This document shows positions 5,615 through 64,000 of a stretch of 64,000 bases of DNA, piece by piece. Numbering within the stretch: position 1 is the stretch's first letter; every line of letters starts with the position of its first letter. Source of the DNA: Parietaria judaica (Eukaryota; Streptophyta; Magnoliopsida; Rosales; Urticaceae); contig OX940868.1 in NCBI GenBank assembly GCA_954871525.1, positions 12,266,056-12,330,055 of the forward strand. The letters run 5' to 3'. The notes under the pieces were generated by a model, which had not been told where the DNA came from, ran no database searches, and saw only the letters and a program-made list of their open reading frames with translations. Both the position numbers and the translations under genes were made by a program.

Positions 5615-6178
5615 ATGGTCCAGCGCGTGCACGCGCCGCGGGAGCCGCGCGCGCTGCCGGAGGCGGTGGCGCGCGTGCACGCGCACGAGGTGCGGCCCGA
5701 CCAGTCGTGCTCGGCGGTGATCCAGGAGATCGCGGCCCCGGCTTCGACGGTGTGGTCGGTGCTGCGGCGCTTCGACAACCCGCAGGCCTACAAGCACTTC
5801 GTCAAGAGCTGCGCGGTGATCGGCGGCGACGGCGCCGTGGGCACGCTGCGGCGCGTGCAGGTGGTGTCGGGGCTCCCCGCAAACACCTCCACGGAGCGGC
5901 TCGAGATCCTCGACGACGAGCGGCACGTGATCAGCTTCAGCGTGGTTGGCGGCGACCACCGGCTGTCCAACTACCGGTCCGTGACCACGCTCCACGCCTC
6001 GCCCGCCTCGCCCGGCGCCACCGTGGCCGTGGAGTCCTACGTGGTCGATGTCCCGCCCGGGAACACCACCGACGACACGCGCACCTTCGTGGACACCATC
6101 GTGCGCTGCAACCTCCAGTCCCTGGCCACCCTCGCGCAGAACCTCGCCGCCGACAAACCCCACGCGCAACGCACGTGA
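5615..6178 (+). CDS. PYL: Abscisic acid receptor, PYR/PYL/RCAR family (PYL4/5/6-like)
   Basis: A single-exon gene of 187 aa with a START/Bet v1 fold. Established role: a soluble cytosolic and nuclear receptor that binds ABA and then inhibits clade A PP2C phosphatases, releasing SnRK2 kinases. Seen in the sequence (numbering from this ATG): the ABA-carboxylate lysine in HFVKSC (K64), the gate loop SGLPA (85-89), the latch HRL in GGDHRLSNYRSV (115-117), and the C-terminal PP2C-contacting helix in DDTRTFVDTIVRCNLQSLA (about 153-171). The intronless structure and the N-terminal arm fit the monomeric PYL4-6 group. The frame is open upstream to 5552, but only from a GTG; the first in-frame ATG is at 5615. 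The CDS is strikingly GC-rich against an AT-rich surround. Assignment to PYL4, 5 or 6 needs a tree. Confidence 0.95.
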   Translation: MVQRVHAPREPRALPEAVARVHAHEVRPDQSCSAVIQEIAAPASTVWSVLRRFDNPQAYKHFVKSCAVIGGDGAVGTLRRVQVVSGLPANTSTERLEILDDERHVISFSVVGGDHRLSNYRSVTTLHASPASPGATVAVESYVVDVPPGNTTDDTRTFVDTIVRCNLQSLATLAQNLAADKPHAQRT

Positions 6179-13786: not shown

Positions 13787-13802
13787 TTAACCCCCCAGTT
13801 TT
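13787..13802 (-). other. Polypurine tract of Tat-type element
   Basis: Read on the minus strand, AAAACTGGGGGGTTAA directly abuts the 3' LTR. This is the expected place for the plus-strand primer. The 14-nt core recurs internally at 18214-18227. Confidence 0.75.
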
Positions 13803-13831
13803 ACGGAAGTTCGTGATTTCCGTGAAACTTC

Positions 13832-13838
13832 TATAAAT
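13832..13838 (+). promoter_or_regulatory. TATA box for the antisense gene of the element
   Basis: TATAAAT stands 46 bp inside the left LTR boundary, pointing away from the LTR. It is followed by a C/T-rich leader and a possible small intron (GAAGTAAGTC near 13900). It is suitably placed to drive the plus-strand spliced ORF at 15339-17167. This is an inference from position and motif only. Confidence 0.4.
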
Positions 13839-17167: not shown

Positions 17168-17621
17168 CAGCACAGGCGACCTCTCGCGATTCCGAGGCCA
17201 CGGGGTGGAGTAGCACAGCGTCTCTTCTTGTACTTTTCTTCGCACTCTTTTTTCAGAGTTTTGTAGCACCCACCGCCTGTGGTGAGGTTTTGACTGATGC
17301 CTTCTGGGCATGGCTTGTATATATTTGACTCAGTTTCCGCTTTTTATGTCATGTCTCTACATGCCTCGATTGAGGTTGCGCCGGTTTTTATTTTGCTGCT
17401 TCCGTTGGTTTCCGCTTTTCTCGGTTTTACCCCTTCTTTCTTTTGTTGCAGGCGATTCGGTTCGGTTTCCGATTCTTTCACCGGCGGTTATCCTGATGTA
17501 CCTGTCGTACTCTACGCCTTTCGAAATAGGTTTTCGACCCCCCGAGCTTTGTTGAGCTTTTTTTGGGGTGGCCTCCTTCTGCTTTTAGCCAAAGTCTGGT
17601 TTCTGGCTTCGTTCTCGGGTG

Positions 17622-18152
17622 CCTGAGCAGGCGGGATCGGGGTCCGGGCCTTGCTAGAACTTTTGTGTTGGGAGGACGCTTCTGAGGCGTTTGGCTTCCC
17701 AAAGTTGGCGCCTGGGAGGGCGGCTTACTGTCTCGGGTGCCGAGGTCAGCGCATGGGAGGGCGGCTTACAGTTTCGGTCTTGGTTGCCTGAGCAGGCGGG
17801 ATCGAGGTTCGGGCCTTGATAGAACTTTACGCTTGGAGGACGCTTGTGAGGTGTTTGGCTTCCCGAAGTTGGCGCCTGGGAAGGCGGGTTTTTGTCTCGG
17901 GTGCCGAGGTCGGCACCTGGGAGGGCGGCTTACAGTTTCAGACTTTGTCGCCTGAGCAAGCGAGATCGAGGTCCGGGCCTTGCTAATACTTAATGCCTGG
18001 AGGACGCTTGTGAGGCGTTTGGCTTCCCGAAGTTGGCGCCTGGGAGGGCGGCTTACCGTCTCGGGTGCCGAGGTCGGCGCCTGGGAGGGCGGATTACAGT
18101 TTCGGACTTTGTTGCCTGAGCAGGCGGGATCGAGGTCCGGGCTTTGCTAGGA

Positions 18153-18155
<3 letters not shown>
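17622..18155. repeat. Tandem repeat, about 164 bp period, 3.2 copies
   Basis: Units start with CCTGAGCAGG/CAAGC at 17622, 17787, 17951 and 18115, a spacing of 165, 164 and 164 bp. Inside each unit a GCCTGGGAGGGCGGCTTAC block appears twice. It lies in the 3' spacer of the Tat element, and the copies differ at several bases. Confidence 0.85.

Positions 18156-18156
<1 letters not shown>

Positions 18157-18193
<37 letters not shown>
18157..18193. repeat. (TA)n microsatellite
   Basis: A pure TA tract at the end of the last tandem unit. Confidence 0.95.
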
Positions 18194-18196
<3 letters not shown>

Positions 18197-18213
18197 TCTT
18201 TGCCTATTCCGGT

Positions 18214-18227
18214 AACCCCCCAGTTTT
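18214..18227 (-). other. Internal second polypurine-tract-like motif
   Basis: AACCCCCCAGTTTT on the plus strand is identical over 14 nt to the sequence abutting the 3' LTR (13789-13802). A third, weaker version (AACCCCCGAGTTTTT) is at 16036-16050. It lies between the end of pol and the antisense-gene block. Confidence 0.5.
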
Positions 18228-18818
18228 TGAGTAATCTGTTGGGGTTAGGAAAAAACTATACAAGTAGAGACATATGTGATAGTAGAAATAACAATTTTCT
18301 ATTGATTTGGCACTTCTTGTGGTGCCTTCTTTACATAGATTGGTCCATCGGAGCTATTTCCGGACCATTTGGGGTGCTTTGTGGCGGGGACGATGATTTC
18401 GGGCGTGTTCCCTGCGAGTTTTCCTTCCTGTGTTGGAGCTTTTTGTTTTTGTTTTTTCTTAGCTTCAACCTGGATCGGAACATTCCAGGGAAGATTTTCC
18501 GTAGACTGGCCGGGCTCTCGGTCGTTGCTCAGCTCGTTCGGCTCCGTACTTCACAGGTTTCTCGCTCCGGGTGCGCGGCCCGTTTCTCGCCGCGTGCCAC
18601 TTACTAGTAGTATTGCTTCAAATGTTCGACGTTCCAGGGACGGGGAATCTCCTTACCCCCCATCTCTTCCAGTCGATAAGTTCCATCTCTGATGACTTCG
18701 TTGACGCGGTAGGAACCTTCCCAGGTAGGTCCCAGGACGCCGGCTCCCTGGACTTGCGTGTTCTGCCCACCTTTCTGAGAACAAGGCTGCCTTCGAGGAA
18801 GCGTCTTGCCTTGACTTC

Positions 18819-21800
18819 TTAATTGTAGTATCGCTCTACAATCCGCTTCTGGGCCGCCAGGTGGGTATAGGCGTCGTTTCTTCTTTCTTCAAGGAGGTCG
18901 AGCTCGGCTCTTAGTGCCTTGGAGTTTTGTTCCGGGTCGTAGAGTTCAATCCGGGGCGATGGCACTGTGATCTCCGCAGGGATGACCGCCTCGACGCCAT
19001 ATGTTAGAGCGGATGGAGTTTCGCCCGTTGCGTTTCTGGCGGTGGTGCGGTACGCCCAGAGCACTGCTGGCAATTCTTCGGCCCATTTCCCTTTCTTCTC
19101 GTCAAGTTTCTTTTTTAGGATCGCCTTGATATCCTTGTTGACTGACTCCACTTGGCCGTTGGCTTGTGGGTAGACCGGGGAGGAATAAGTGTTGCTTATT
19201 CCGAGGTCTTGGCAGAACGACCGGAGGTCCGGGTTGTTAAACTGTTTAGCGTTGTCGGTGATGATGGACTCGGGGATTCCGTGCCGGCACACTATGTTGC
19301 GCCAGATGAAATTTGTTGTGTTCGTCTGAGTGATCTTTGCCATGGGCTCTGCTTCGACCCACTTGGTGAAGTAGTCGATAGCGACTATGGCGTATTCCAC
19401 CCCTCCTGGTGCCTTTGGGAGTTTTCCGATCAGGTCGATCCCCCATTTCGCGAAGTGACGGGGGATCATCACAGGGCAGAGTGGGACCGCCAGCTGTCGC
19501 GGGATTTGCGCAAACTGTTGGCATTTGTCACATCTTCGCGCCATTTCGGCGGAGTCTTTCTTGAGAGTGGGCCAGAAGTACCCTTGTTTCAGAGTTTTCA
19601 GCGCCAGGGATCGTCCTGTGTAGTGGTTTCCACAAATTCCTTCGTGGATCTCGCGGAGGACTAGGTTGGCGTCTTCTTCATCGAGGCATTTCAGGAGAGG
19701 TTGAATGAAACCTCGTTTATAGAGTTCTCTATTGTGTAGCACATATCTTGTTGCACGGAACTTGAGCTGTCTGGCTTTTTTGCGATCGGTCGGGAGAGTA
19801 CCATGTTTCAGGTACTTTGTCACCGGGGTGGTCCATCTTTCGCCGGGTTCGCTTGCCAGGGAGAGGATTCCCTCGTCATGAGTTGGGATTGTTCCTTTTT
19901 TTATTTCTGTCGTCGCTTCGTTTCTGGCGGCGGCGTCAGGGATTTCGAGCTTCCTTATCGAAGGTTCGCTGAGGGCTTCGATCGGGACATTTTCCCGTCC
20001 TTCGTTGCCTGCCCCGGAAGCTTCCCTTGCTAGGGCGTCGGCCTCCGAGTTTTCGTTTCGTGGGATCTGTGTGATCTCGTACCAGGATAGTGGCTCCAGG
20101 CGTCGTCTCGTTTCCGCAAGGTACGCCACCATGTGAGCTTCCTTTGCTTGGTACTCACCATCCACTTGCTTCACAATCAGTTGAGAGTCGCAGTGGATTC
20201 GTAGGTTTTCCACCGAGAGCTTGTGTGCGATTCGCAGTCCGGCTAGCAGCGCCTCGTATTCAGCTTCGTTATTTGAAGTCTTGAACCCGAAGCGCAGGGC
20301 GTAGCGGACCTTTTCACCATCGAGGTTGGTGAGTACTATCCCGGCCCCGGACCCGTCCATGTTTGAGGCGCCGTCGACGTGCAGGCACCAGGTTGGGCCG
20401 TCGGGGGGATTTTTTCTCTTTGGGGGTTTGGGTGCTTCGTCCATTTCTTCCTTGGTTTCGTCCTCGGTGTCGTATGTGAACTCAGCGATGAAATCGGCTA
20501 GAGCTTGGCCTTTGATGGCTACCCCAGCCTGATACTCGACGCCGTATTCTCCTAGCTCTTGCGACCAGATAGCCATTCGTGAGGAGGTGCCTTTGAGCAG
20601 CGCCTTCCGGACCGGGTGCTCAGTTCTCACGACTACTTGGTGAGCCTGAAAATATGGGCGGAGTTTCTTTGCGGCGGTGACCAGGGCTAGTGCCAATTTC
20701 TCGATTTGCGTGTAACGCATTTAAGCGTCTAGAAGGGCTTTGCTGATGTAATAGATCGGTAATTGCCTCCTGTCTTCTTCCCGGACCACCACGGCGCTCA
20801 CCGCTCGAGTCGAAACCGAGAGGTAGAGGTAAAGTGATTCCTCCTCTTTTGGTTTTGACAACAAGGGTGGTGATCCAAGGTAGGTTTTCAGCTCCTGGAA
20901 GGCTGCTTCTTACTTCTCGTTCCAGACGAAGTTCTTTCCACCTTTGAGGGCCTAAAAGAATGGTTGGCAGCGGTCCGTGGCTTTTGAGATGAACCTTCCT
21001 AGAGCGTTGATCCTACCGTTCAGGATTTGCACTTCCTTGATCCGTTGTGGGCTCCTCATTTCGAGGAGGGCTTTGATCTTTTCGGGGTTAGCTTCGATAC
21101 CTCGTCTGTTGACGATGTATCCCAAGAACTTTCCGGATTCGACTCCGAAGGCGCACTTGGCTGGGTTTAGCTTCATCTGATACTTTCTCAGTAACAGGAA
21201 TGTCTTTCGCAGATCGTCGACGTGATCTTCTTCCCGGAGACTCTTTCCGATCATGTCGTCCACGTATACCTCCATAGTCTTTCCGATTAGCAGAGCGAAA
21301 ATCTTGTTGACCAGGCGTTGGTACGTGGCTCCGGCGTTCTTGAGTCCAAATGGCATGACTTTGTAGCAATAGAGACCTCGATCGGTCACGAATGTCGTGT
21401 GTATCTGATCGGGCTCGTGCATCCGGATCTGGTTGTATCCTGAGTAGGTGTCCATCATGCTCATGAGCTGGTGGCCGGCGGCAGCGTCCACCAATTGATC
21501 GATTCCTGGTAGCGGGAAACAATCTTTGGGACATGCCGCATTGAGATCGGAATAATCTATGCAGATTCTCCATTTCCCATTTGGTTTTTTCACCATCACT
21601 ACGTTGGATACCCAGTCAGGATACGTCACCTCTTTGATGAAGTTGGCGGCAATGAGCTTGTTGACTTCTTCTCTGATCGCCTGGTATCGTTCGGGGTTGA
21701 AGGCGCGCCGGCGTTGGATCTTCGGCGTTCTCCCCGCTTCGATGTTTAATCGGTGAACGGCGATTTCGGGGTCAATGCCGCGCATGTCGGCATGTGACCA

Positions 21801-21986
21801 GGCGAACACATCCTTGAATTCTCTTAAGAATGCGATCAACCTGGTTTTGATCATGACCGGGAGTTGGGCCCCGATCGTGACCGTCCTTTCGGGCCGGTCT
21901 TCCGCGATCGGTATCTGTGTTACTTCCGACGAGTGTTCCATGGTGGGCTTGCGTCTGTCATCTCGAGGGTCCAGCTCGCCAAACAT
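18819..21986 (-). pseudogene. Tat-type pol: reverse transcriptase, RNase H, second RNase H, integrase
   Basis: The RT part (21986-20952) has WRICIDYSDLN, FPLPGID, the catalytic YVDDM and FLGYIVNRRGIEANPEKI. The next frame (20720-18819, 633 aa) has the end of the first RNase H, then a second RNase H (LHVDGASN near residue 114, NNEAEYEALLAGL, DSQLIVKQVDGEYQ). The integrase follows, with an HHCC finger (EIHEGICGNHY ... CDKCQQF) and the DDE residues in WGIDLIGKLP, IITDNAKQF and GQVESVNK. Between the two frames the reading frame is unbroken except for three stops (near 20953, 20910 and 20719). The enzyme therefore was one polyprotein and is now dead. The dual RNase H places it in the Tat clade. 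Confidence 0.93.
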
Positions 21987-22490
21987 CCTTGCGTCCCTGG
22001 GGTAATCGGGAAGTTCTTCCTCGAGTTGCTAATCGTATTGATAACCGACTCGTTCTTCCCGGGTTTTCTTCCCTGGGCGTAGCAATTTCTGGATTCCTGC
22101 TGACTACCTTTCATAACTCCTATCCCGTTTTCAGTCGGGAATTTGACGAGTAGATGAAAGGTAGATGCGATGGCTTGCAATTTGTTGAGGCTGGGTTGTC
22201 CCAAGATGACATTGTAGGCCAAAGGTTGGTCCACCACGAGGTATCTGATCATTTTGGTAATCAGGGCTCCGTCCTCGGATCCGAACGTCGTGGGAAGGGT
22301 GATGGCGCCCTCGGTGTAGACAGGCTTTCCGTTGAAGCCATAAAGGGGTGTCTTCATCGGCGTGGGGATCAGACCTCCGAGGTTCATTTGGACCAAGGCG
22401 GATTTGAAGATAACATCGGCTGAGATTCCGTTATCGATCAGAACTCGCCGAACTCGGCTATGGCAACTAAGATATCAGTTACGATGGCGT
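21920..22490 (-). pseudogene. Tat-type retropepsin (protease) region, frameshifted
   Basis: The minus strand shows the protease active-site block LIDNGISADVIFKSAL, followed by PLYGFNGKPVYTEGAITLP and LAYNVILGQPSLNKLQAI. The upstream frame (DAIVTDILVAIAEF) connects only through a frameshift near 22445. DNG with Ile in place of the usual Ser or Ala after the glycine is noted. It sits between gag and RT as expected. Confidence 0.85.
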
Positions 22491-22758
22491 CGTTGTGAAG
22501 GTGAGAAATTCTTCGAGCCTCCTGCTCGGTGAAGGTGATCGCTTGGCTGGGGAGCATGTGGGGTGCTCCCCCGAGGTGAGTGACGTTGACTTGATGGACG
22601 TCAAAGTCTTCCCCGAGGGACCTGGCGTATCGTTTTCGTTGATTGTTTGAATCTCCGGTCTCGGGTCCGCCCATGATGGTCGATATGATGTGGAATTGGG
22701 AAGGCCTGCCCTCTTCCGGCGCTTTTCCAGTACATGATAGATTGGGGCTGCCTTCGCG

Positions 22759-24480
22759 TTATGGTCTGGTGTCTTGCTGGCTCAGGTTGCGGGTGTTCTC
22801 GCTTCCCGAGACTAACTTCTTGACGAACTCTTTGAGTTGTCCGTCCTGAATTAGTTGCTCAATCTGCCTTTTCAGCTGATAGCATTCTGACGTCGTGTGG
22901 CCGTGATCCTGGTGGTATTTGCAGTATCGGCTCATGTCCTTTTTGGCGTTTTTCTTGAGCGGCGGCGGTCTCCCGAATTTATCTCCATGTAGGCTGAAGA
23001 TCACTGCGGGCGAGATTGTCAGGGGGGTGAAGTTCGCGTCTTTTCGGAATTTCTCTGCCCGTTTGTGCAACGGTGGTCTGTTTCCGGAATGGGGCTGTTG
23101 GTGTTGCTTCCTACTCTGTGGTCCGCTGCTACCACCTTTTCGGTCGTCGCGATTCCGATCGTCAGAGCTGAATTGGTTTCTGCCGCCGAAGTATTCGTCG
23201 ACAGCAATGTCTTTCGCCGCCCTCGCCATCAATTCGGCCATTGAGACTGGCCTATCTTTGACAAGGGAGCGAGAAAAATCGCATAGTGGCAGGCCGTCGA
23301 TTACGGCGGTAATGGCGTCGTCGTCCGTGTAACTGGCGACTTTGTTGGATTCCTCAACGAACCTTTTCAGGTACGTCTGTAAAGTGTCGTCTTTGCGCTG
23401 CTTGAGAGTCCACAGGTAGAACTTTGGCTTGCGCTGTGAAATCGAGCTGGCGAAACGCGAGGTGAATCGTTCTGCGAGTTCGTCGAAAGACCCGATGGAC
23501 CCCTTCGGAAGGCGTTGGTACCATTCGAAGGAGGGTCCCGTGAGGGTGAGGCAAAAAGCTTGACACATCGTGGCGGGTGAGCATTTCTTCACTCGCATGT
23601 TGAACTGGTATTGCACCAGGTGGTATGTTGGGTCAGCAGTGCCGTCGTAGATGAGGTTTAGTGGGAACCTCAGATCTCCGTCGAGATCCTCGGCGAGCAG
23701 GTGGTCCGCCAGAGGGGAAATGTTCCCTTCAGGTAAACTCCGTGTCACTGGGTTAGCACTCTGGGGCGCGGTGAGCTTCTGCATTTCTCGCTTGAGGGTT
23801 TGGAGCTCGCTTTTGAGGCCCTCGTATGGCGGGGTTGTCACTTGAGTACCTATTGCGGGGATGATATATTCTCCCTCCTAGTGCCGGGGGCGCCGCGAGT
23901 TGTCGGACCTCCTTGAACTCTCGTCACTACCAGACTCTTCTGGCTGGCGAGGTCTTTCCCTTTTTCGGCTTTGGTGTTGCTGCCGATTTCTTTGTTGTCC
24001 GGTGCGATCTAGGCGGTGTGGGAGGTCTTCCTCGTCGTTCGGGTGAGTCGGGATATGCCTCTGCCGCCGACGCTTTCTTCGCCGACTTCTAGCATTGTTT
24101 GTGGCTCCTTCATACCCCCCGAGTCGATCGAAGGCTGACCGTCGGGTGGTTTGTGATTGCGCCGAATCCTGAGAGTTTTAAGGAACGGGGCGTTCTTCGT
24201 TTGCCTCTTTCTGGGTGAGTTCAAGGGCTTCTTCAGGGCTTTCCTCCTCTCCTTCGTTGGCGTGCTTACCTTCGAAGTGTTTGGAGATGAGTCATGTTAG
24301 TCGGAAAATACTTTCTTCGACTCGGACCAATCTTTCCTCGTTGTGAGCTGACTCACGACGGGTGCTTGTTTCCGACAGGATACGGACCTGCTTTCGACGA
24401 GCTTGGGTCTTGGCCCGAGTGTTTAGGGCGATGCTCTCTGTGGGTTGAGAGGGCGTGCCTTCCGTCGATTTGGATGACAT
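22759..24480 (-). pseudogene. Tat-type gag, interrupted by stops
   Basis: The N-terminus begins at ATG 24480 (MSSKSTEGTPSQ) and stops at 24292. The C-terminal part is open for 360 codons (23841-22759). It contains the retrotransposon capsid core (FEWYQRLPKGSIGSFDELAE, RKDDTLQTYLKRFVEE) and a zinc knuckle CKYHQDHGHTTSEC. Between them the frame continues with stops that include CGA-to-TGA and CAA-to-TAA types and a TAG near 23880, as expected from deamination of methylated cytosine. Confidence 0.88.
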
Positions 24481-24547
24481 TCTCTGATTTATGGGATCAG
24501 AGCGTCGTTCTGCTGGTGGGGTTATTCACAGGACTGAATTCGTGCCC

Positions 24548-24565
24548 CCCCTCCTTCTAGCGCCA
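24548..24565 (-). other. Primer binding site of Tat-type element
   Basis: On the minus strand TGGCGCTAGAAGGAGGGG starts 3 nt after the 5' LTR end, the correct position for tRNA priming. I do not assign the tRNA. Confidence 0.75.
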
Positions 24566-24568
24566 AAA

Positions 24569-26176
24569 TGTTGATGCCGTTTTTTGGATCAAACACTGTT
24601 GAGGCCCAAGTTGTAGATTTTTGGGCCTGGCCCAATAGTCGTTGATGACGTGGCGGGCTTCTGTTGATGCTTGTATGGGCTTTGGATGGATTTTATTGTC
24701 AATGATCGTTCTCCCTGATTATGTTGACTTCGGGGTGGTCAGCGTAGACTTCGAGGTGAGGTTTCGGTTGACCGATTTGGGGACTCTGAGTCGGTGTCTC
24801 TGGGATTTCTTGGATCGAAGGTCTCGTGGCCGCTCAGGGTCCGGGCGATCGGGATGGCTCACTACCTGTTACCGCAGAGCCTGAAGATGACCAGGACGGG
24901 TTTTGTACAGGTTCAGAGTCCACGCAGATCGTGGGTACCAATGAGCGGGGGAGGGCATTCGTCCGATAAATTAACCCAGAGGCCTCCCTCAGGGTGATCC
25001 CTTGGTCGTCCGGATCTTAGAGGAATTTCTTCACGCCTGACCCTGCGGCCTAAATAGTGGGCCCTGTCACTTGTCCCCAGACTATCCCAACAATCGCGTA
25101 ATGTATTGGAGATAGGCTGGACACAACGTGAAACAGAGCCTATTAGGCGGGTCTTGGCCTTATGAAAATTCCTCCAGGGCTTCCGCTTTTATGAATTATT
25201 TCACTTTCTGAGCCTGAAAAAATGTAACACCCGAGGTCAAGGGAAACAGGGGGGGGGGGGGGGGGGGGGGTACCCCCTGATTCACCTCCGACACTCAACA
25301 TTAGTATAATATTTGAGGGGAGGCGAGTATATTGGGGGTAGAGAGAGAGAGAACTCGAGTCGAGTGAGTTTGAAAGAGTTACCGTTTCAACTAAACTGAG
25401 CTTCTATTTATAGTTGGGCCCAGGGGGCCTAAATGCAGTAAAATATTGTTTCGGGGGGGCCCGGACAATAATTTAATTGTATTTTAGTCCATGGGAAAAG
25501 ATGGTCCGATCCCGGCCGTCCGCGCGAGATCGGACGGCCACCAAGCCCCCGAGGGGGGCCCGCTTTGTGCGAGATCGATGGGCAAGGGTAATCCCTGCCC
25601 TACACGTGCCCGTGAGGGCCCGCCCCAGCAAGTGGGCAGGCGCGGCATCCCATGCGCCCCGTTCAGGCCCATCGGGGCCTTACACGCGTACCGCGCGGGG
25701 ACCGAGGCCCGCAAGTGGGCGTGTCCCGCTGAGGGGACACGGGCGCTCGTGATCGCGCCATGTGGCGCGATCGGGTGTAGGCTGCCCACAAGTGGGGGGC
25801 TGAGGCGACCCCGGGTGGGGCCCGCGGGCGAGTGGCGGCGCAGGAAGCCGCCACGTGGCGTGGCCCTGACAGCTGCCGCCCCTGTGGTCCCCGCGGGTGT
25901 TTCCTCGGCCATTTTTGCTCCCGGGCGCGTCCCGGGTTCGTTTTTCGTAAATTTTATGTCGTTTTTGGGGTTCTTCATATTTTTGCGAACACCGGGACAC
26001 TTTGTTTATCGAAAACGGGCCTCCGGAGGGAAATTTGGGTTTGAAATTGATTAATTTGATTAATAACCTTTATTAAAAGATTAATCAAATTATATAATTA
26101 ATTAACGGAAATCATTTTAATAATTTCCGTTTAATTAATTTATTTCGTAAATCAATTCCGAGAATTACCCATAACA
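24569..26176 (-). repeat. 5' LTR of Tat-type element (right LTR)
   Basis: 1608 bp, ending TGTTGATG/CATAACA on the plus strand, flanked by TSD ACGTT at 26177-26181. In the element sense the promoter TATA (TATAAATAG) lies near 25410. A G-homopolymer of about 20 nt at 25250-25270 differs in length from the left LTR. Confidence 0.93.
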
Positions 26177-28316: not shown

Positions 28317-29538
28317 TGTTATGGGTAATTCTTGGAATTGATTTTCGAAATGAGTTAATTAAACGGGAATTATTAACATAATTTCCGTTAATTAATTATA
28401 TAATTTGATTAATATTTATTAATCAAATTAATCAATTTCAAACCCAAATTTCCCTCCAGATGCCCGTTTTTGAAAAACAAAGTGTCCCGGTGTTCACAAA
28501 AGTATGAAGAACCCCGAAAACGACATAAAATTTACAAAAAACGGACCCGGGACGCACCCGGGAGCAAAAATGGCCGAGGAAACACCCGTAGGGCCCACAG
28601 GGGCGGCGGCTGTCAGGGCCACGCCACGAGGCGGCTTCCTGTGCCGCCACTCTCCCGCGGGTCCCACCCGGGGTCGCTTCAGCCCCCCCCACTTGGGCCC
28701 CTGGACCCTATTATAAATAGAAGCTCAGTACAGTTGAAACAGTAACTCATTCGAACTCACTCGACTCGAGTTATCTCTCTCTCTCTACCCCCGATATACT
28801 CGCCTCCCCTCAAATATTATACTAATGTTGAGCGTCGGAGGTGAATCAGGGGGTACCCCCCCTGTTTCCCTTGACCTCGGGTGTTACATTTTTCAGGCTC
28901 AGAAAGTGAGATAGTTCACAAAAGCGGAAGCCCTGGAGGAATTTTCATAAAAGCACGACCCGCCTGATAGGCTCCGTTCCACATTGTGTCCATCCTATCT
29001 CCAGTCCACCATACGACTGTTAGGATAGTCTGGGACAAGTGACGGGGCCCACTAGTTAGGTCGTAGGGTCAGGTCTGAGAAAATCCCTCTAAGATCCGGA
29101 CGACCGAGGGATCACCCTCAGAGAGGTCTCTGGATCAATATATTTGATGAATGCACTCCCCCGTTCATTGGTACCCCCGATCCGCGTGGACTCCGAACCT
29201 GTACAAAACCCGGCCTGGTCATCTCCAGGCTCTGCGGTAACAGGTAGTGAGCCACCCCTATCGCCCGGACCCTGAACGGCCACGAGACCTTCGATCCAAG
29301 AATTTCCAGAAACACCAACTCAGAGTCCCCGAATCGGTCAATTAAAATCTCGCCTCGAAGTCAACGGGATCGGAAGGAGCAACCACCGACAGCAAAATCT
29401 GTCATCCCCGTAACCAAGGCCAGTCAAGGCCCACCAAAAAATCAACGAAAAGCCCGCCACGTCAACAAGCGACATTGGGCCAGGCCCAAAATCTTCAGCT
29501 TGGGCCTCAACAGTGTTATCCAAAAAACGGCATCAACA
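28317..29538 (+). repeat. Solo LTR of the same Tat family
   Basis: 1222 bp, TGTTATGGGTAATTC ... CGGCATCAACA, flanked by a perfect TSD GTTAC (28312-28316 and 29539-29543). It is the reverse complement of the LTRs at 12252 and 24569, minus an internal block of roughly 370 bp between CCCCCCCACTTG and the promoter. The LTR promoter CCCTATTATAAATAG is near 28708. A solo LTR arises by recombination between two LTRs of one element. Confidence 0.93.
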
Positions 29539-39131: not shown

Positions 39132-39271
39132 GTATATCTCCATTTGCTTTCTGATTTTTTCTTGGCCTCTATTTCTTTTTCTCCTTAATCCTCTCTTATG
39201 GCTTGAGGCGGGCAAAATCAGCAACAAAACCCCAATTTTTTCTCCTTTTAAATCCCCCGACCCCTTCAAAT

Positions 39272-42200
39272 ATGGATTCTACCTCCAACCCCTACTTCTT
39301 GCACAGTGCGGATCATCCCGGCATGATCCTCGTCTCCAACCAGCTCACTAGACCAAACTACAACACCTGGAGTCGTTCCATTCTCATGGCGTTGAATGCG
39401 AAGAACAAAATCGGACTCGTTGATGGCTCCATTCAGATCCCATCTCTCGATGATGCCTGCGCCGGCGATTGGTCTCGTTGTAACAGCATGGTAACTTCCT
39501 GGCTTCTTAACTCCGTCTCTAAAGACATTGCAGACTCTCTTCTTTTCAATGATTCTACTCGGGCTGTTTGGGAAGATCTACATACTCGTTTTCGACACAG
39601 CAATGCTCCTCGAATTTTCCAAATCAAACAACAGTTGCTTCATTTACCTCAAGGAGACATGGATGTTAATCCATATTACACCAAACTGAAGATATTATGG
39701 GATGAATTGAAAAATTACCAACCCGCTCTTGTTTGCTCTTGTGGGGGTATGAAATCTAGGACAGAATACCAGGATCAGGAATCTGTAATGCAATTTCTAA
39801 TGGGATTGAACGATTCTTACTCCAACATCCGTGGGCAAATCCTTATGATGGAACCATACCATCTGTTGCTAAGATCTTTATCCTTGTCGTTCAAGAAGAG
39901 AGACAACGAGGTCTCGGCACAAGTGTCTTTGGTCCTTCTCCGGCTTCGACTGCCTTCCACGTCGTTACTCCACCTATTCCGACGGCTCTTGCTGCTTAGT
40001 TCTCTCGCTTTAAGCGACCGATTTACTCTCATTGTGGCATCTCTAGCCATGTCGCTGACAAATGCTTCAAGTTGCACGGTTTCCCTCCGGGTTACAAGGT
40101 GAAACCAAAGGCGCCAGCAGCACCGCAAACTCATTTTATGGCTTCTTCAAATATGGTGAACTCTTTTCCATCTACATTAGCCATCGGTGCAAGGGGTGCG
40201 TCTACTGCACCGCCATTGAATTCTCTTTCGACGGATCAGGTTCAACAACTCATTGCTCACCTCAGCTCCCAGCTCCAGAACCAGCCACCACAGACAGAGA
40301 CAACTCTTAATGATGTCAATCCTACTGTTTTGGACGGTAATATATCCTCATTTTCTCTTAGTAACCCTCCTACAAATGTCTTGGGTTGGATTCTTGATTC
40401 TGGTGCAACACACCATATATGCTCAGATCTGAATTTTTTTTCTGAATCCAAACCTGTTTCTAATACTATTGTGAGCCTCCCCGATGGGCATTATGCTTAT
40501 GTCACTCATATTGGTTCTGTCCATTTAACATCATGTATCATTTTGTATAATGTCCTTCATGTACCTTCATTCTCATTCAACCTCTTAAGTATTCGCGAGC
40601 TCACTCGAACTCTTCCTTGTCATGTTGACTTTTTCATGGATTTCTGTGTCATTCAGGACCTTACTCGGGGCTTGACGATTGGGAGGGGTACACAAGAGAA
40701 CAAACTTTACATTTTAGAAACCACAGAAAGCTTATGTAATTCAATTTCTGTTTCTAGTTTTTCAATTTCTAAATCAGACATTTGGCATTGTCGCCTTGGA
40801 CACCCGTCTCATGTAAAACTACGTATTTTATGCAATGAATTACATATTCCTTGCTCTACTTCTGTTTTAGATTCACATTGCAAAATTTGTTATCTATCTA
40901 AACAACGACGACTCCCTTTTATTTATAATAACAATATGTCTGCTGTCCCTTTTGATCTCATCCACATTGATACATGGGGACCTTTTCATGTTGCTACACC
41001 ACAAAGTCACAAATATTTCCTTTCGATTGTTGATGATTGCACCCGTGCAACTTGGGTCTATCTCTTGAAAGCCAAATCAGACTTTCTGTCCTTGTTTCCA
41101 CAATTTTATTCTATGATTTCAACATAATTCAAAGAAAAAATTAAATTGGTGCGATCTGATAACGCTCCTGAATTCGCATTCACTGATTTTTTTCAACAGC
41201 AAAGGAATTATTTCTAATCACTCGTGTGTTGAGCAACCAGAAAAAAACTCCTTTGTTGAGCGTAAACACCAACACCTGCTTAACGTTGCACGAGCCCTTT
41301 ACTTCCTGTCACATCTTCCTCTTTGTTATTGGGGAGATTGTGTACTCTCGGCAGTTTATCTTATTAACTGAACTCTTCACTTATTTCTAAGAAAACTCCA
41401 TTTGAACTTCTCTGCAAAACAAAACCGTCGTTTGCTCATCTTCGTGCTTTTGGTTGTTTATGTTATGGTTCCACACTTATTAGTCAACATCATAAATTCT
41501 CTCCTCGCGCCCGGGCATCTTTTTTTCTTGGATATCCTCCTGGAGTAAAGGCTTATAAACTTCTTGATATTGAAAGTCGCCGTGTTTACATTAGTCGCAA
41601 TGTCGTTTTCCATGAGAACATTTTTCCTTTTGCTCACTCTCCATCTTCATCTCTATCGACTTGTTTATTCGATGATCGTGTTCTACCACGTAATTCCTTT
41701 CCTCTTCCTGAGCCTACACCAATTACAGCCCATAATTCCCAACCTCCCTCCATTCAAACTCCACCGGATGTCTGCTCTCCAAATATTCGTCCTACTGGAA
41801 CCACTAAACACCCTTCTTACTTATCTGAGTACCATTGCTCTCTCACACGTTCTAAAAGTCCTACACTCTCATCAACCCCTGCCACATATCCTATCTCATC
41901 TCCTCTCAGTTACAGTAAACTATCCCCACCTTACCGTGCCTTCACCTTTTCTATTAGTTCCCATCATGAGCCTTCAAATTTCACCACTGCCCTAAAAAGT
42001 GAGATTTGGAGAGAGGCCATGGCCCTTGAGTTACAAGCTTTGGAATCAAATCGAACTTGGTCTCTTTGTTCTCTACCAGTTTGAAAGCAACCTATTGGTT
42101 GCAAATGGGTATACAAGAGCAAATTCAAAGCCGATGGTACTGTCGATCGCTATAAGGTCCGTCTCGTTGCAAAAGGTTACACGCAACAAGAGGGCATAGA

Positions 42201-43527
42201 TTTTCTAGACACATTTTCTCCCGTAGCCAAGCTTGTTACTGTTAAGACTCTTTTTTCTATTGGTGCGGTGAAAGGATGGTCCCTTAGTCAACTTGACGTC
42301 ACCAATGCTTTCTTGCAAGGTGACCTTGACGAAGAAGTTTACATGAAATTACCACCAGGGTACTCTCTCGGCAATGGGGAGCAAATTTTTGACCTTCCTC
42401 CTAATACTATTTGCCGCTTACACAAATCCATATATGGATTAAAACAGGCTTCACGACAATGGTTCCACAAATTCTCCTCTGTTTTAATTTCTGAAGGCTT
42501 TTCTCAGTCTTCTTGCGATCATTCACTATTTACCATGACCATTGGCACCTATTTTCTTATTTTATTGGTGTATGTTGATGATATAATCATTGCTAGCAAT
42601 GACACTCCGTCAGTCGATGCTCTCAAAGTTTCTCTCCACCGGCAGTTCAAACTTAAAGACCTTGGTTCTCTTTGATACTTCTTGGGTCTTGAAATTGCTC
42701 GATCTTCCACTGGGATTTATGTTAGCCAAAGAAAATATGCACTTGAACTCCTTTTTTATTCAGGTTACTTAGGATGCAAGCCACTGAATATACCAATGGT
42801 CCCTAACCTTAAACTTTCTCAATCTGAAGGGGATTTATTGGCTGATCAAACTAGCTATCGTCGTTTGATCGGTAAGTTGTTGTATCTCACAATCACACGA
42901 CCAGACCTTAGCTATGCCGTGAACCGTCTAAGTCACTTTCTTGCAGTCCCTCGCACTCCTCATCTTCAGGCCGTTTTTCGTATTCTACAATACGTAAAAT
43001 GAACACCGGGACAAGGGTTATTTTTTTCTTCCAAGTCGACGTTACAACTCAAGGCATTCGCATATTCTGACTGGGCCCAATGTCCAGGTTCTCGTTGGTC
43101 TATTTTGGGTTTTTGCATCTTTCTTGGCTCTTCTCTTATTTCTTGGAAATCCAAGAAGCAACACACCGTTTCACGCTCTTCGGCAGAGGCCGAGTATCGA
43201 TGTATGGCAAATACTAGTTGTGTAATAACTTGGCTCATTGCTCTTCTCCAAGATCTTCGAATTTCTCATCGTACACCTGCGCTTTTATATTGCGACAATC
43301 AAGTTGCCCTACACATTGCTGCTAATCTGGTTTATCACGAGCGGACGAAACACATTGACATAGATTGTCATCTCATTCGAGAAAAGATTCAATCTGGCAT
43401 CATCAAAACCTTTCATGTCTCTTCCGACAACCAACTTGCCGATCTGTTGACTAAGGCGTTCTATCCGTCTCAGTTTCATCATCTTTTACGCAAGATGGGA
43501 GTAATCAACATATACTCTCCATCTTGA
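39272..43527 (+). pseudogene. Copia gag-pol polyprotein, multiply interrupted
   Basis: In order: gag/UBN2 region from ATG 39272 (MDSTSNPYFLHS, NYNTWSRSILMALNAKNKIG); frame change near 39870; zinc knuckle near 40020-40090 with its first Cys replaced (TGC to TAC); protease LDSGATHHIC (about 40390); GAG-pre-integrase HCRLGHPSHVKL ... CKICYLSKQ; integrase HIDTWGP ... stop at 41125-41127; RT region 42000-42990 with catalytic YVDDI; RNase [55 protein letters not shown]. Stops at 41125, 42082, 42674 and 43000 interrupt it; two are CAA-to-TAA and CGA-to-TGA. It ends with TGA 43525-43527, next to the PPT. Confidence 0.92.
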
Positions 43528-54794: not shown

Positions 54795-57700
54795 ATGCAA
54801 AAGTGGAACAGGAAGAGAACCCAGTTTCCGATTCTGGCCCTGCTCTTCCTCGCCTTCGTCATCCTCTCCATCCTCCACAGCGAGCGCAGCATTCTTCAAA
54901 TCCACCCCCATCAAACCCAGATTCACCAAGAACCTCCGACTCTTCAACCCCCTCACCAACAGACCGATTCCTTCACTTACGTCGACCCCAATCGCGCAAC
55001 TCCTCGGAGTAATCAACTCTCTCTTTCTCCGATCTCGCCGTTTCATGAAATTGCTTATCTGACTTGCTTTTTTTTTTTGCAGAGGGCATCGACAGATTCA
55101 GCAGATGCAACTCGACGAGAGAGTACAGTCGCCGGCGAATCCGGGTCTCCGGCGACGGGGGTCGCCGGAGGGAGAGGTCGATGGAGGCGACGTGCGACGT
55201 GTTCGACGGGAAGTGGGTCTGGGACAACGAGTCGCGGCCTTTGTACAGCGAGGGTGGGTGTCCGTACATGTCGGACCAGCTCGCGTGCCACAAGCATGGC
55301 AGACAGGATTTGGGGTATCAGTATTGGAGGTGGCAACCCCATGCCTGCAATTTGAAAAGGTACCTCCTTGAGAACCCCAAAAAACCGAATTGATGAACCC
55401 AAAACCTTGATATTGAAGACCATGAGGACCGAATAGTAGGGTTAAAGTTCATAAAACAAGGTCTTCGGTCCAAACTCTGTGTGTCTGTTTTTTTCTTTTT
55501 TTCTTTTTTTTTTTGTGTGTGTTTGCTTGTGCTTGTAAAGTGCGGATTAGAGAGTTTTGATAATCGTGGTATCCGGGTACACCCGACTAGTAATCACAGG
55601 GCTCCGGCATTATCGATCGGGAGACTATCCCAGTTATCGAGTCTAGGAGGAATTGAACTTTGGATGTGCAAGATCATGAGTATCGATCTAACGATTAGAC
55701 CAACCCTCGGGGTTGCAATTTGAAAAGGTGCTTGTGTTCTTACGCGGTTAGAGAATTTTGATGATGCGTTTTTTTGTTGGTGATTGTGGGAATCGGGATT
55801 CACTTCAAATCAGGTTGGCATGATCTGTTTTGGTTGACTTGAGAAGGGATTTTAGGGAACCATTAAAGAATAAGATATGTATAGCTTAAGAAGATATGTT
55901 TCATGTTCTGATAGTAGCACTTAAAATGCACAATTCTTTTGGGTTCACTTGCAAAAGTTACAGATTTGTTCTGATTTCGGAAATTGGGTAAATTAAGTGA
56001 CATAACATGAATAGTTGGTGCCAAGCAATTATTTGAGATCCCGTGATCACGTGGGCCCGATCTTGGCGATTGTCAGTTTTAGTTCTTGTCTTTACTTTCT
56101 TATTTAATATCGATTTTTGTCGCCTTTTCAATTTAGTAGTCTTTTCTCTCACTTAGGCTTGTTTCTCATTTCATTTCGGGAAATTTAGACGATTAACTTG
56201 GCTGCTCTAGTTGTAATTTTTAGTTTACGATGAATGATAAAAATGGTCATTTGAAGGTTTATTGTGTTTTTCCGTCTTTCCTATATCACAAGTCTACATC
56301 TACAGTCCATATCTAGATTTTTGAGCACCAAAGTATTAAATTATTTTCATTGACTTGAAAAAAGGGTCAGATTATACAATGAGGGAATTTGAGCTCATTC
56401 AATCATGTTTGATGAATGTGACTCAAGGATTAGAGCAACTGCTACCTATGCTGAAGATTATACAATTTATATATAAATTTATTACATTTGCTAACTGCTG
56501 TAATTTTAAAGATATTTCCTTTAAAAAAAAAAAAAAGAGGCTCTCGGTACACTGCGATTTGAACTAAAATAAAAATAAAATTGTGCATGAATGAAATTTG
56601 TTTGTGTCAAATTTATATATATTGTGATCAATGATTTTTGTAATATTATTTGGTTGTTGAGTTTCATTTTGAGTGATTTTGTATTTGATTGAGATTGTTC
56701 CTTTTCCGGGTTTAGGTGGAACGTGAAGGAAATCTGGGAGAAATTGAGAGACAAAAGGCTTATGTTCGTGGGAGATTCATTAAATAGAGGTCAATGGATA
56801 GCAATGGTGTGTCTGTTACAGTCAGTCATCCCCGCTAATAAGAAATCCATAACTCCGAATGCCCCTCTCACCATATTCCGAGCAGAGGTTTGTCATTCTG
56901 CCCCTAGCAACGGTCCCGAGTATATTTGGCTTTACTTTCAGCAACAAGTTTCTTGTATGAATCCCAAATCTGTGATAATTGAGTGAAAATTATATTTCGG
57001 GTGAGCAGGAATACAATGCAACAATTGAATTTCTCTGGGCCCCGCTTCTCGTGGAATCGAATTCCGACGACCCCGTGAATCACAGATTGGACGAACGGAT
57101 TATCCGTCCTGATTCGGTTCTCAAGCACTCATCGCAATGGGAGAAGGCGGACATTTTAATTTTCAACACGTATTTGTGGTGGAGACAAGGACCCGTGAAG
57201 CTATCGTAAGTAAAATGATACATAGATTTTAATATTGCTTTTTTCTTCTTTTATTCTCGGAAATACAGCGCCGGAAACTGAATCAGGCTATGAATTTATG
57301 ATGTAGATGGAGTAGGGAAGAGAATGGAGTTTGTGAAGAGTTAGATGGTTATGGAGCCATGGAATTGGCAATGAGATCTTGGGCGGATTGGGTTGCGACG
57401 AAAGTGGATCCTCTCAAGAAGCAAGTCTTTTTTGTTACAATGTCTCCTACGCATCTCTGGTACGTCAACGCTCTCTTCTCTTTCTCTTCTCTTTTGCAAT
57501 ATAATCCTAATTCTACAGTTATAAAATTAGGGAAAAAAACCTTGCAACTGTTTTTCACCGGTACCAGTTACGGAAAACGGATACCAATTTTATTAAGCTG
57601 TTTTTAGATTTTTCTTACAGATTGTAGGGATATCTTTCTGTATAGATTATAATTGACTCGACACCAGTTAAAGTTAAACACCGGTTATAGTATTTATCAA

Positions 57701-58402
57701 GGCTTACGCCTCGAACGCCTCGAGGCTTAAATACGTTATTCACAACATTGTTAATTCTAAAAAGCTGGAAAACTAGTTCGGGTCTTAGTTCGGTGCCCAG
57801 TTTGACAAAGTTTTGACATTATATGCTTCGAACTAAAAAACACTACTCACCTAATCTTGCCCACAGTAAAGTAAGCCTTTTTTTTTTAATCAATAATTTA
57901 TTAACCGAGTTCTCGGTTTTGAACTGGAAGATGCCAAGTTGTGCATTTGCTTTTATAGAAGCTAGATCTTTGGCTATTAATAAACTATAAATGAATACTC
58001 AGTGCAAGAGTTGTGTGCCGTAAACAAACTATTCATTTAAGCTTGTAAATAAGCGGAATCCAAAATTTCAGGAACCGAGAATGGAATCCGGGAAGCGAAG
58101 GTAATTGCTACGGCGAGAAAACGCCGATCAATACGGACGGATATTGGGGAAGCGGGTCGGATTTGCCCACAATGCGCATGGTGGAGAAGATCCTCGACAA
58201 GTTAGGTCCGAAAGTCTCGGTTCTGAACATTACCCAGCTGTCAGAATATCGAAAAGACGGCCATCCTTCCATCTTCCGCAAGTTCTGGGAGCCATTGAAG
58301 CCCGAACAGCTGGCGAACCCCGCCGGTTACTCTGACTGCATACATTGGTGCTTGCCTGGTGTCCCTGACGTGTGGAACGAGTTGCTCTTCCATTTTTTGT
58401 AA
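54795..58402 (+). CDS. TBL: TRICHOME BIREFRINGENCE-LIKE protein, probable wall polysaccharide O-acetyltransferase (copy B)
   Basis: Six exons: 54795-55008, 55083-55359, 56716-56887, 57009-57205, 57307-57459, 58072-58402; introns GT-AG with phases that restore one frame; 447 aa. It has a membrane anchor (about 11-27), a stem of His/Pro/Gln-rich sequence, the PMR5-N domain ([31 protein letters not shown]), GDS (FVGDSLNRG, 183-185) and DxxH (DCIHW, 426-429), ending FHFL. Exons of 172 and 197 bp match copy A exactly; copy B has one extra intron in the region of copy A exon 1. This shows tandem duplication followed by intron gain or loss. Predicted Golgi type II O-acetyltransferase of the TBL3/28-35 group. 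The exon 1/2 junction (A/GTAATC to TTGCAG) is the least certain. Confidence 0.93.
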
Positions 58403-61330: not shown

Positions 61331-62039
61331 ATTTAACTCAGAACTACCAATTTCTTGGAAGCTTGATATGTCTCTTAACAGTTGTACATTTGTTAAATTG
61401 ATGTTTTGGTCCTTGTATTTGTAACAGGAAAAAACAGCATAACACTTTTTTTTTCATGCATAAAAAGATCATTGTAAAACATTTTTCAGAAGACCCCCTT
61501 GAAAGGTAAGCTACTACAGTTAAGAACTTCCTAATCCTAATTATTAATTAAGAAAAGGACAAATTGAAACAATTACTAACCTTGAAATCTTTTTTTATTC
61601 CCTTTGTTAGAAAAAAAAAAAAAACTAAAAAAAAAAAAACGAGATTATGAATAATATTGTTGCAACTATATTAGGAATATATTGGGACTATATTTTAAGT
61701 GCAATTGTGACCTAACAACATTTTAAGATAAAGACATAAGTATTCATAAATTAACGTTTTGTGCAGCATAATCGGGTAGTCTCTTTATCAAATATTACAA
61801 TAAACGGAAACTAATGAAACTTCATTAAGAGTACTTAACGTACGATACACAAACAACGAGATTATGACACATCAAAATACTATTTGATGGGTACTTATGC
61901 CGCACTTTTTCTTTCCGCTGCAGTACAATATAATAAACCCCAAAGACAAAATGTATATGAGACACTGAAGTTACCTTTCCTTGTAAGAAGTGGTCAAACG
62001 AACTGTTTAATTGCTCCTTTTACTATACATGCCGAAACA
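61331..62039. other. Intergenic
   Basis: AT-rich with A-runs (61612-61640). It may contain the 3' part of the MIR390 primary transcript. The plus-strand frame at 61884-62069 runs into the hairpin and is not believed to be a gene. Confidence 0.45.
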
Positions 62040-62066
62040 ATGGAGACTATAAGCAGGAAGAAGCCA

Positions 62067-62087
62067 TGAAACTCAAGATGGATAGCG
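62067..62087 (-). ncRNA. MIR390: miR390 star (3' arm)
   Basis: 21 nt, CGCTATCCATCTTGAGTTT then CA. It has T where the familiar star has C at position 12, changing a G:C pair into G:U. Confidence 0.9.
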
Positions 62088-62118
62088 CTAGATCAGCATA
62101 ATATGGTTATTATAGTCT

Positions 62119-62139
62119 GGTGCTATCCCTCCTGAGCTT
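62119..62139 (-). ncRNA. MIR390: Mature miR390 (5' arm)
   Basis: 21 nt beginning with the 5' A preferred by AGO7 for miR390. It ends GCACC where most species have GCGCC. Confidence 0.92.
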
Positions 62140-62203
62140 CACAGATTCTTTGCTTCTTCTTCGAACAGAGCAAGAACAAGAAGATGACGAAGAAGAAGAC
62201 CAT
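62123..62203 (-). other. Short ORF overlapping miR390 (miPEP-like candidate)
   Basis: The first ATG downstream of the predicted start (62203) opens 26 codons (MVFFFVIFLFLLCSKKKQ and on). The stop TAG lies inside the mature miRNA. The peptide has a hydrophobic N-terminus then a Lys cluster. It could be a miRNA-encoded peptide or chance. Confidence 0.3.
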
Positions 62204-62266
62204 CACTGTGTTAGAGAGAAGAGAAGAGAAGATAAACCATGTTTATTTTGGGTGTTCAGTTGCGCA

Positions 62267-62274
62267 AGTATTTA
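62267..62274 (-). promoter_or_regulatory. TATA box of MIR390
   Basis: On the minus strand CCTCTATAAATACTTG contains a canonical TATAAATA. Transcription would start at about 62240, roughly 100 nt before the mature miRNA. Confidence 0.65.
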
Positions 62275-62399
62275 TAGAGGAAAAACAAATGAACAGAGCT
62301 TATCCCATTGCCAGGAGGAGCCATGGAATAATAGAATAATTAATAAAGAAATAAACATTGACTATAGGAAATACTCGTAGTGTTTTGACCCCAAATGTG

Positions 62400-63540
62400 A
62401 CACTTTTGTGAGTTGTATTATTATTAAGAGAGTATTTTATTTAATAAATGAATGAATGAATGGATGGACACAATTTCCAAATCTTGATTTGGTGTTGACA
62501 AATGCATGTGATGTCGAGCTGATATCTTTATCAATTCCTCTGCCGACTACGAATTTGTATTCCCTAATTTCCACTTTTAATACGTATGTATAATGCAACA
62601 TTAATCAATCCTATCAAGCACAAACTAATTATAAATAAAAAATGTTTTGAAACTACTGATAAATTAGAAAATATATAAATAAATATAAAGCCCATAGTGT
62701 CATATATTAATTATTTTGAAACTATAAAATATAATTATAGTATAAATGTTTTTTTTTTCTGAAACCTTATATCAAGTTTGAATTTATCTTTCATTTTTCT
62801 CATTTCATAAAATTCGAATTTTTTAAAATTCTCTTGAAAAATTCATTGTTTTTAGTAGCTTAATATAACTTATTCAGTTCATGTGATTGAAATTAAATTT
62901 TACAAAATTTAAGAACCCTCTTAAATTTAATAAATATTAATTAATAACAAATCCAAATGTGATAAACCTCTAAATGTGATAACAAATCCAGTAAACAGTA
63001 TTAGATTTATTTTTTAATAAAACCATAACTATAAATCCGATACTGATTTTTAAATTTTTTTATATTCTTATTTTTAAAATTGATCAATCAAAACCGTCGG
63101 ATTAAAAATATCAAAGTTCGGATAGAACAAAAAAAAAAAAAAAATTCAAAAAAAAAAATCTTTTTAAATTTTACCCAAAAATTCAAATTTTCAGGTACTG
63201 CATTACAACATTACTAGAAAAATAGTTATCTATTACTATAAATATCTGATAAATTATTATGCAATTGATCACACCATGAAAACTAGGATACTATATTATG
63301 TTAATGAATATATGAAAATTAGATATTTATATAAGATAATATTATTATTAACCTAGAAAAATGCACCGTCACAGTAAAAAAAAAAGTTTAATTAATTGTA
63401 AAATTTACCCTCTCAAGTCAATAATGACTTTTCAGGGATGATAGTGATTTGTGGGCACCCTAACATACTGAAATCTGTCGTTTGCATGTTCAGAACGGTA
63501 AAGAGCATTAAAATCACATTGCCATTGTAATGATTAGAGC
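62400..63540. other. Intergenic / MIR390 upstream region
   Basis: AT-rich with A- and T-runs. Some of the first few hundred bases should be MIR390 promoter. No gene is seen. Confidence 0.45.
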
Positions 63541-63553
63541 TGCACAACACTAA

Positions 63554-63652
63554 GTCGCGATCAATCGCGACTTAATCGGCAAAAGTCGCCAAGTTGCGCA
63601 TCGCGACGCATCGCGGGGAAGGAGATCGCGACGCATCGCGGCGCATCGCGAT
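63554..63652. repeat. GCGACGCATCGCG palindromic repeat cluster
   Basis: TCGCGATCAATCGCGA, GCATCGCGACGCATCGCGG, ATCGCGACGCATCGCGG and CGCATCGCGAT follow one another in an otherwise AT-rich background. GCATCGCG or its close variants appear about five times. Confidence 0.7.
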
Positions 63653-64000
63653 TTCAAAGGGTGTTCAAATGCTTTGTTTGCGGCAAAAGTTCTAATATAT
63701 TTCCAATGTTTAATTTTATTAGTTTTTACCCGAATTTAATTATTTAAAAATATTATTTAAGTATGTTATTTAATTTAAAATTAATAAATATGATAAAACA
63801 AATAAATAAATATGATAAAACAAGATATTAAAAAAAAAAGTTGTGAGGAAATGAGGGAGGAAGGGGTGGTATTTATAGGGTTTGATGAGAGAGTTGGGTG
63901 GGTGAATAATTATTGTGGTGGGTGAATAATTATGAGGAGATAGTGGGTAAAAAAAAAAATTGAAATTTTAGGGTTGAATTCGAATAAAGTAGGTAAAAAT
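63653..64000. other. Intergenic, nothing recognised
   Basis: AT-rich. A tandem duplicate GGTGGGTGAATAATTAT occurs near 63897-63932. Confidence 0.5.

What the first reader, a model, noticed from the sequence alone, without database searches (positions are those of the whole stretch)
62040..62280. A MIR390 locus with its own TATA box
Mature and star sequences, 2-nt overhangs, internal mismatch and a TATA box are all in place on the minus strand. It is invisible to ORF-based annotation and is the only RNA gene in the window. The A at position 19 and U at star position 12 are uncommon variants that leave A:C and G:U pairs in the duplex.
Basis: partly seen in the sequence, partly recalled or inferred. 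Interest (0 to 1): 0.88.

Follow-up and report, generated by a model that had tools for sequence, protein, structure and literature searches.

The report
An ordinary plant MIR390 microRNA gene
This looks like a normal copy of a very old plant microRNA gene that helps set leaf and root growth through auxin signalling; its one-letter spelling variant is already known from several other plants.

Summary
The minus strand holds a MIR390 precursor: miR390-5p at 62139-62119, star at 62087-62067, a 21/21-nt duplex with 2-nt 3' overhangs and the G11:A9* mismatch. The hairpin folds better than all 200 shuffles (z -5.98). Rfam's MIR390 model gives 76.1 bits, E 5e-15 over the window, 0.9 bit under the curated cut-off. 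A TATAAATA motif lies at 62276-62269. PYL4-like and TBL34-like genes in the window suggest the position of Arabidopsis MIR390a (At2g38325), next by locus number to TBL34 (At2g38320) and PYL4 (At2g38310). The A at position 19 is published from soybean, bean, tomato, pepper, wild tobacco and tree peony; tomato miR390a shares the A:C end mismatch. The star with U12 was in no paper of the library. Most likely function, from the literature: DCL1 processing, AGO7 loading, TAS3 cleavage, tasiARFs, repression of ARF2/3/4. No expression data were available and the plant's own genome could not be searched. New member of a known kind; low interest.

The parts
62119..62139 (-). mature miR390-5p, 21 nt, A at position 19
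   Evidence: letters identical to gma-MIR390b, sly-miR390a-5p and can-miR390c
62067..62087 (-). miR390 star (3p), 21 nt, U at position 12
   Evidence: first 20 letters in no paper of the library, U or T spelling
62088..62118 (-). terminal region between the two strands, 31 nt, with a short distal stem
62055..62153 (-). MIR390 precursor hairpin as delimited by Rfam RF00689
   Evidence: 76.1 bits, E 4e-17 in 501 nt, 5.1e-15 in the whole window; gathering cut-off 77
62140..62155 (-). 5' arm of the lower stem below the mature strand (pairs with 62051-62068)
   Evidence: predicted fold
62269..62276 (-). TATAAATA, probable TATA box; transcription start expected about 62240-62250 (inference)
62123..62203 (-). 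26-aa open reading frame upstream of and running into the mature sequence; coding not shown
5639..6148 (+). PYL4-like ABA receptor gene, possible syntenic neighbour
   Evidence: 85% identical to Ficus carica PYL4; PF10604
47066..51855 (+). TBL34-like gene in five tblastn blocks, possible syntenic neighbour
   Evidence: PF14416 and PF13839
55175..58399 (+). second TRICHOME BIREFRINGENCE-LIKE gene; nearest to MIR390 of the reading frames with a Pfam match among those tested

Best explanation
A MIR390 gene of a eudicot whose neighbouring genes resemble those of fig and elm, probably the positional counterpart of Arabidopsis MIR390a. Pol II transcribes it from the TATA motif on the minus strand (inferred). 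DCL1 cuts the hairpin into the miR390/miR390* duplex (inferred from geometry). The 5' A and the kept duplex centre route the guide to AGO7 (inferred from the literature). miR390-AGO7 binds and cuts TAS3 transcripts, giving tasiARFs that lower ARF2, ARF3 and ARF4 (known for the family, not tested here). Shown here: the sequence, duplex, predicted fold, family match and neighbouring genes. The A19 variant probably changes little: it faces a U in two of the three published TAS3 primer sites examined, turning a G:U into an A:U.
For: Exact duplex anatomy; only match in the window; Rfam MIR390 E 5.1e-15; fold z -5.98. The same mature letters were sequenced in other plants: common bean 388 reads in total, pepper ten counts from 42 to 1,241, tree peony up to 3,466 reads. 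Neighbours: PYL4-like and TBL34-like proteins of Ficus carica (TIFTF001_009640, _009638) share one longest-contig length, as do those of Ulmus minor (UlMin_000919, _000918); Arabidopsis MIR390a is At2g38325, TBL34 At2g38320, At2g38310 is listed with PYL4. 5' A and duplex centre as AGO7 determinants: passage of PMC5902766. Computed pairing to three TAS3 primer sites is 0.4, 0.7 and 0.6 kcal/mol better with A19 than G19.
Against: The Rfam score is 0.9 bit below the curated cut-off. The duplex is weaker than the canonical one: -25.1 against -29.1 kcal/mol, tomato miR390a -27.8. No high-affinity AuxRE (TGTCGG/CCGACA), needed in Arabidopsis MIR390a, in the 1,731 bases upstream; only TGTCAC and TGTCAT of six hexamers sought. 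In mulberry the miR390 row seen is the G19 form, so another copy may supply most miR390 here. A passage of PMC3516803 says no 5' nucleotide preference of AGO7 had been identified. The neighbourhood in Arabidopsis, fig and elm was inferred from locus numbers and contig lengths, not seen. No reads or transcripts were available, and the plant's own genome could not be searched.
Confidence: 0.93

Rival explanations
1. A decaying MIR390 copy: the A19:C1* and G8:U12* changes mark relaxed selection, and canonical copies elsewhere in the genome supply the miR390.
For: Duplex 4 kcal/mol weaker than canonical; Rfam below cut-off; no high-affinity AuxRE upstream; the mulberry row seen is the G19 form.
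Against: The mature strand differs from the canonical sequence at one base and the star from the aly-miR390a star at one base, and the A19 form is sequenced from bean, tree peony and pepper and listed for tomato. Other copies could not be sought.
Confidence: 0.05
2. A chance or transposon-derived inverted repeat that happens to resemble MIR390.
For: The window holds retrotransposons and other strong hairpins (3 of 2556 scanned stretches with z at least as low).
Against: 21 of 21 letters of a published miR390, no match in 100 shuffles, E 5.1e-15; 61950-62400 has no second copy in the window.
Confidence: 0.005

Closest known systems
Arabidopsis MIR390a (At2g38325)
   Same: Gene neighbours PYL4 and TBL34 by locus number; mature strand as the form called ath-miR390a except position 19
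   Different: A19 in place of G19; no TGTCGG/CCGACA AuxRE in 1.73 kb upstream; retrotransposons between the PYL4-like and TBL34-like genes. The Arabidopsis precursor itself was not compared
Tomato sly-miR390a
   Same: Identical mature strand and the same A19:C1* end mismatch
   Different: Star has C at position 12 and ends UUUUA where this has U12 and UUUCA
Soybean gma-MIR390b (also sequenced in bean), pepper can-miR390c, Nat-miR390a/b, PsmiR390b-5p
   Same: Identical 21-nt mature strand
   Different: Precursors not compared
Rfam RF00689 MIR390
   Same: Full-length match, model 1-121
   Different: 76.1 bits against a cut-off of 77; 99 nt against a 121-position model, the missing part lying in the loop

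Membership tests
plant MIR390 family | 21-nt 5p strand of the miR390 sequence with 5' A | tested here: met
   20 of 21 letters canonical, all 21 as published A19 forms
plant MIR390 family | Guide on the 5' arm of a stable hairpin, star on the 3' arm, 2-nt 3' overhangs | tested here: met
   by predicted fold and pairing
plant MIR390 family | Central duplex mismatch G11:A9* | tested here: met
   role of the duplex centre in AGO7 choice from a passage of PMC5902766; that it is this very mismatch is recalled
plant MIR390 family | Precise 21-nt reads and AGO7 association in this plant | not testable with these tools
   no small-RNA data at hand
plant MIR390 family | Cleaves TAS3 | not testable with these tools
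   only pairing energies to three published dicot primer sites
Rfam RF00689, automatic assignment | Score at or above the gathering cut-off of 77 bits | tested here: not met
   76.1 bits; a curation cut-off, not a biological trait, so I file the locus under MIR390 on the rows above and not by the automatic call
MIR390a position | Shared gene neighbourhood with Arabidopsis MIR390a | tested here: met
   PYL4-like and TBL34-like genes in the window; Arabidopsis order inferred from locus numbers, not seen
MIR390a position | High-affinity AuxRE in the proximal promoter | tested here: not met
   I saw it reported for Arabidopsis only, so it is not known to define the group
plant microRNA annotation rules (recalled) | At most 5 duplex mismatches, no large asymmetric bulge | tested here: met
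   2 mismatches, no bulge; the rule itself is from memory

The most novel reading that the evidence does not exclude
The changes A19 and star U12 make a distinct miR390 isoform: the open star 5' end shifts strand choice, and A19 pairs Watson-Crick with the U opposite it in TAS3, so this copy loads or acts differently from the canonical one; or the 26-aa frame running into the mature sequence is a translated regulatory peptide.
Probability: 0.05. Interest if true: 0.35.

Novelty: new member of a known kind. Interest (0 to 1): 0.1.

Why it matters
It adds one MIR390 copy, probably in the MIR390a position, with a natural position-19 variant. It also shows that a clear MIR390 can fall just under Rfam's automatic cut-off, so default scans can miss such copies. 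Otherwise it is textbook biology.

Tried and rejected
Default Rfam scan: nothing at the gathering cut-off, resolved with the E-value mode. The antisense match (53.3 bits) is the mirror of the same hairpin and was not treated as a gene. The bacterial promoter and terminator scan does not apply to plants and was set aside. A link to auxin feedback through an AuxRE was looked for and not found. A published miR390 micropeptide was sought: 22 papers hold both words, 12 were listed, and one, PMC11819897, has the word miPEP390 zero times in its main text; the other 21 were not opened. The first 20 letters of the star gave 0 papers in U and in T spelling; the A19 mature strand was searched in U spelling only; supplementary files were not searched. 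The search for two of three Arabidopsis locus numbers in one paper gave 0 papers, so the neighbourhood rests on separate papers. Other MIR390 copies and TAS3 genes of this genome could not be sought. The third protein search and the structure prediction tools were not used.

Full report
Observation. The minus strand of 61700-62700 was read directly. miR390-5p lies at 62139-62119 and the star at 62087-62067, with 31 nt between them. Paired with 2-nt 3' overhangs, 17 of 19 positions pair, two of them as G:U (G3:U17*, G8:U12*), and two are mismatches, G11:A9* and A19:C1*. The miR390 pattern with up to 3 mismatches has this one match in 64,000 bases and none in 100 shuffles. Against over-reading this: in a scan of 2556 stretches of 107 nt, 76 had equal or lower raw energy. 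With 20 shuffles each, the exact hairpin stretch gave z -7.1 and 3 of 2556 were equal or lower, but the grid stretch one base away gave -4.9 and ranked 23rd, so this z-score is noisy.

Family. Rfam finds MIR390 at 62055-62153 (-), 76.1 bits, E 5.1e-15 for the window, just under the gathering score of 77, so the default scan lists nothing. At E <= 0.1 the only other match in the window is the mirror of the same hairpin on the plus strand, and ARAGORN, run with bacterial settings, finds no tRNA.

How uncommon is it? A passage of PMC9907050 says that 306 of 374 miR390 members from 163 species share the standard G19 sequence; how many of the other 68 have A19 is not said there. The A19 sequence, in U spelling, was found in 11 papers of the held library. 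I read passages of six of these 11: soybean gma-MIR390b (PMC2335117), Nicotiana attenuata Nat-miR390a and b (PMC3502350), common bean, 388 reads in total (PMC3359237), tree peony PsmiR390b-5p (PMC5852092), pepper can-miR390c (PMC3667847) and tomato sly-miR390a-5p (PMC4936241). The tomato star printed there begins with C, so it has the same A19:C1* end mismatch. The first 20 letters of this locus's star were in 0 papers in U or T spelling. In mulberry the miR390 row seen is the G19 form, 4,275, 489 and 1,153 reads (passage of PMC4131894).

Neighbourhood. The window holds a PYL4-like receptor at 5639-6148, best hit Ficus carica at 85%; two TBL genes at about 47.07-51.86 and 55.18-58.40 kb, the first matching proteins many of which are named TBL34 (120 of 3969 hits listed); and Gypsy-like and Copia-like retrotransposon genes between PYL4 and TBL34. 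The PYL4-like and TBL34-like proteins of Ficus have locus tags two apart, those of Ulmus one apart, and each pair shows the same longest-contig length, which suggests that the pair is old. In Arabidopsis, MIR390a is At2g38325 (passage of PMC6508847), TBL34 is At2g38320 (passage of PMC3677987) and At2g38310 occurs with PYL4 in 33 papers, 4 of them listed. That these numbers follow chromosome order is general knowledge. I conclude that this is probably the MIR390a position.

Promoter. TATAAATA lies at 62276-62269, which puts a start near 62240-62250 and the hairpin about 100 nt further (inference). The octamer is common in the window, 45 matches against 6.9 expected; the 11-mer CTCTATAAATA has two, 0.09 expected. 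The AuxRE CCGACA that PMC6508847 reports as necessary in Arabidopsis (passages) is absent from 62270-64000; of six TGTC-type hexamers searched on both strands there are only TGTCAC at 62402 and TGTCAT at 62703.

Mechanism. Standard pathway: DCL1 processing (general knowledge), AGO7 loading through the 5' A and the centre of the duplex, then TAS3 and tasiARFs (passages of PMC5902766). An older passage says no 5' nucleotide preference of AGO7 had been identified (PMC3516803). The 5' A and the G11:A9* mismatch are present here. The dicot TAS3 primer sites printed in PMC3835848 (passages) have a U opposite position 19 in two of three cases, by my alignment; computed pairing is -33.0 to -33.4, -36.2 to -36.9 and -32.3 to -32.9 kcal/mol from G19 to A19. 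These are primers, not TAS3 genes of this plant. So A19 is probably neutral for targets. The miR390/star duplex itself is weaker: -25.1 here, -29.1 canonical, -27.8 tomato miR390a. Expression was not examined, and the plant's own genome was not searched, as the tool did not complete.

Verdict. The observation and the interpretation hold; the finding is an ordinary new member of a known family. Whether it is already annotated in its own genome I could not see.

Noticed in passing
62123-62203 (-): A 26-aa frame starts upstream of the hairpin and ends inside the mature miR390; a 9-aa frame lies further upstream at 62211-62240. Either could be translated from the primary transcript.
   Followed up: partly
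63551-63657 (-): A second very stable hairpin made of repeated TCGCGATGCG-type units (-54.1 kcal/mol; fold); a weak similarity of its flank to 9161-9215. No Rfam match at E <= 0.1.
   Followed up: partly
13000-26090: Direct repeats, 95.6% alike, at 13000-13546 and 25326-25873 flank Gypsy-like polymerase genes on the minus strand: probably a large LTR retrotransposon; inverted pieces within 28416-28800.
   Followed up: partly
39155-43527 (+): Copia-like retrotransposon reading frames; reverse transcriptase RVT_2 at 42085-42672.
   Followed up: partly
55175-58399 (+): A second, diverged TBL gene between the TBL34-like gene and MIR390, with its own PMR5N and PC-Esterase domains.
   Followed up: partly
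28351-28457 (+): Double hairpin with the lowest z-score of the scan, perhaps a small inverted-repeat element.
   Followed up: no
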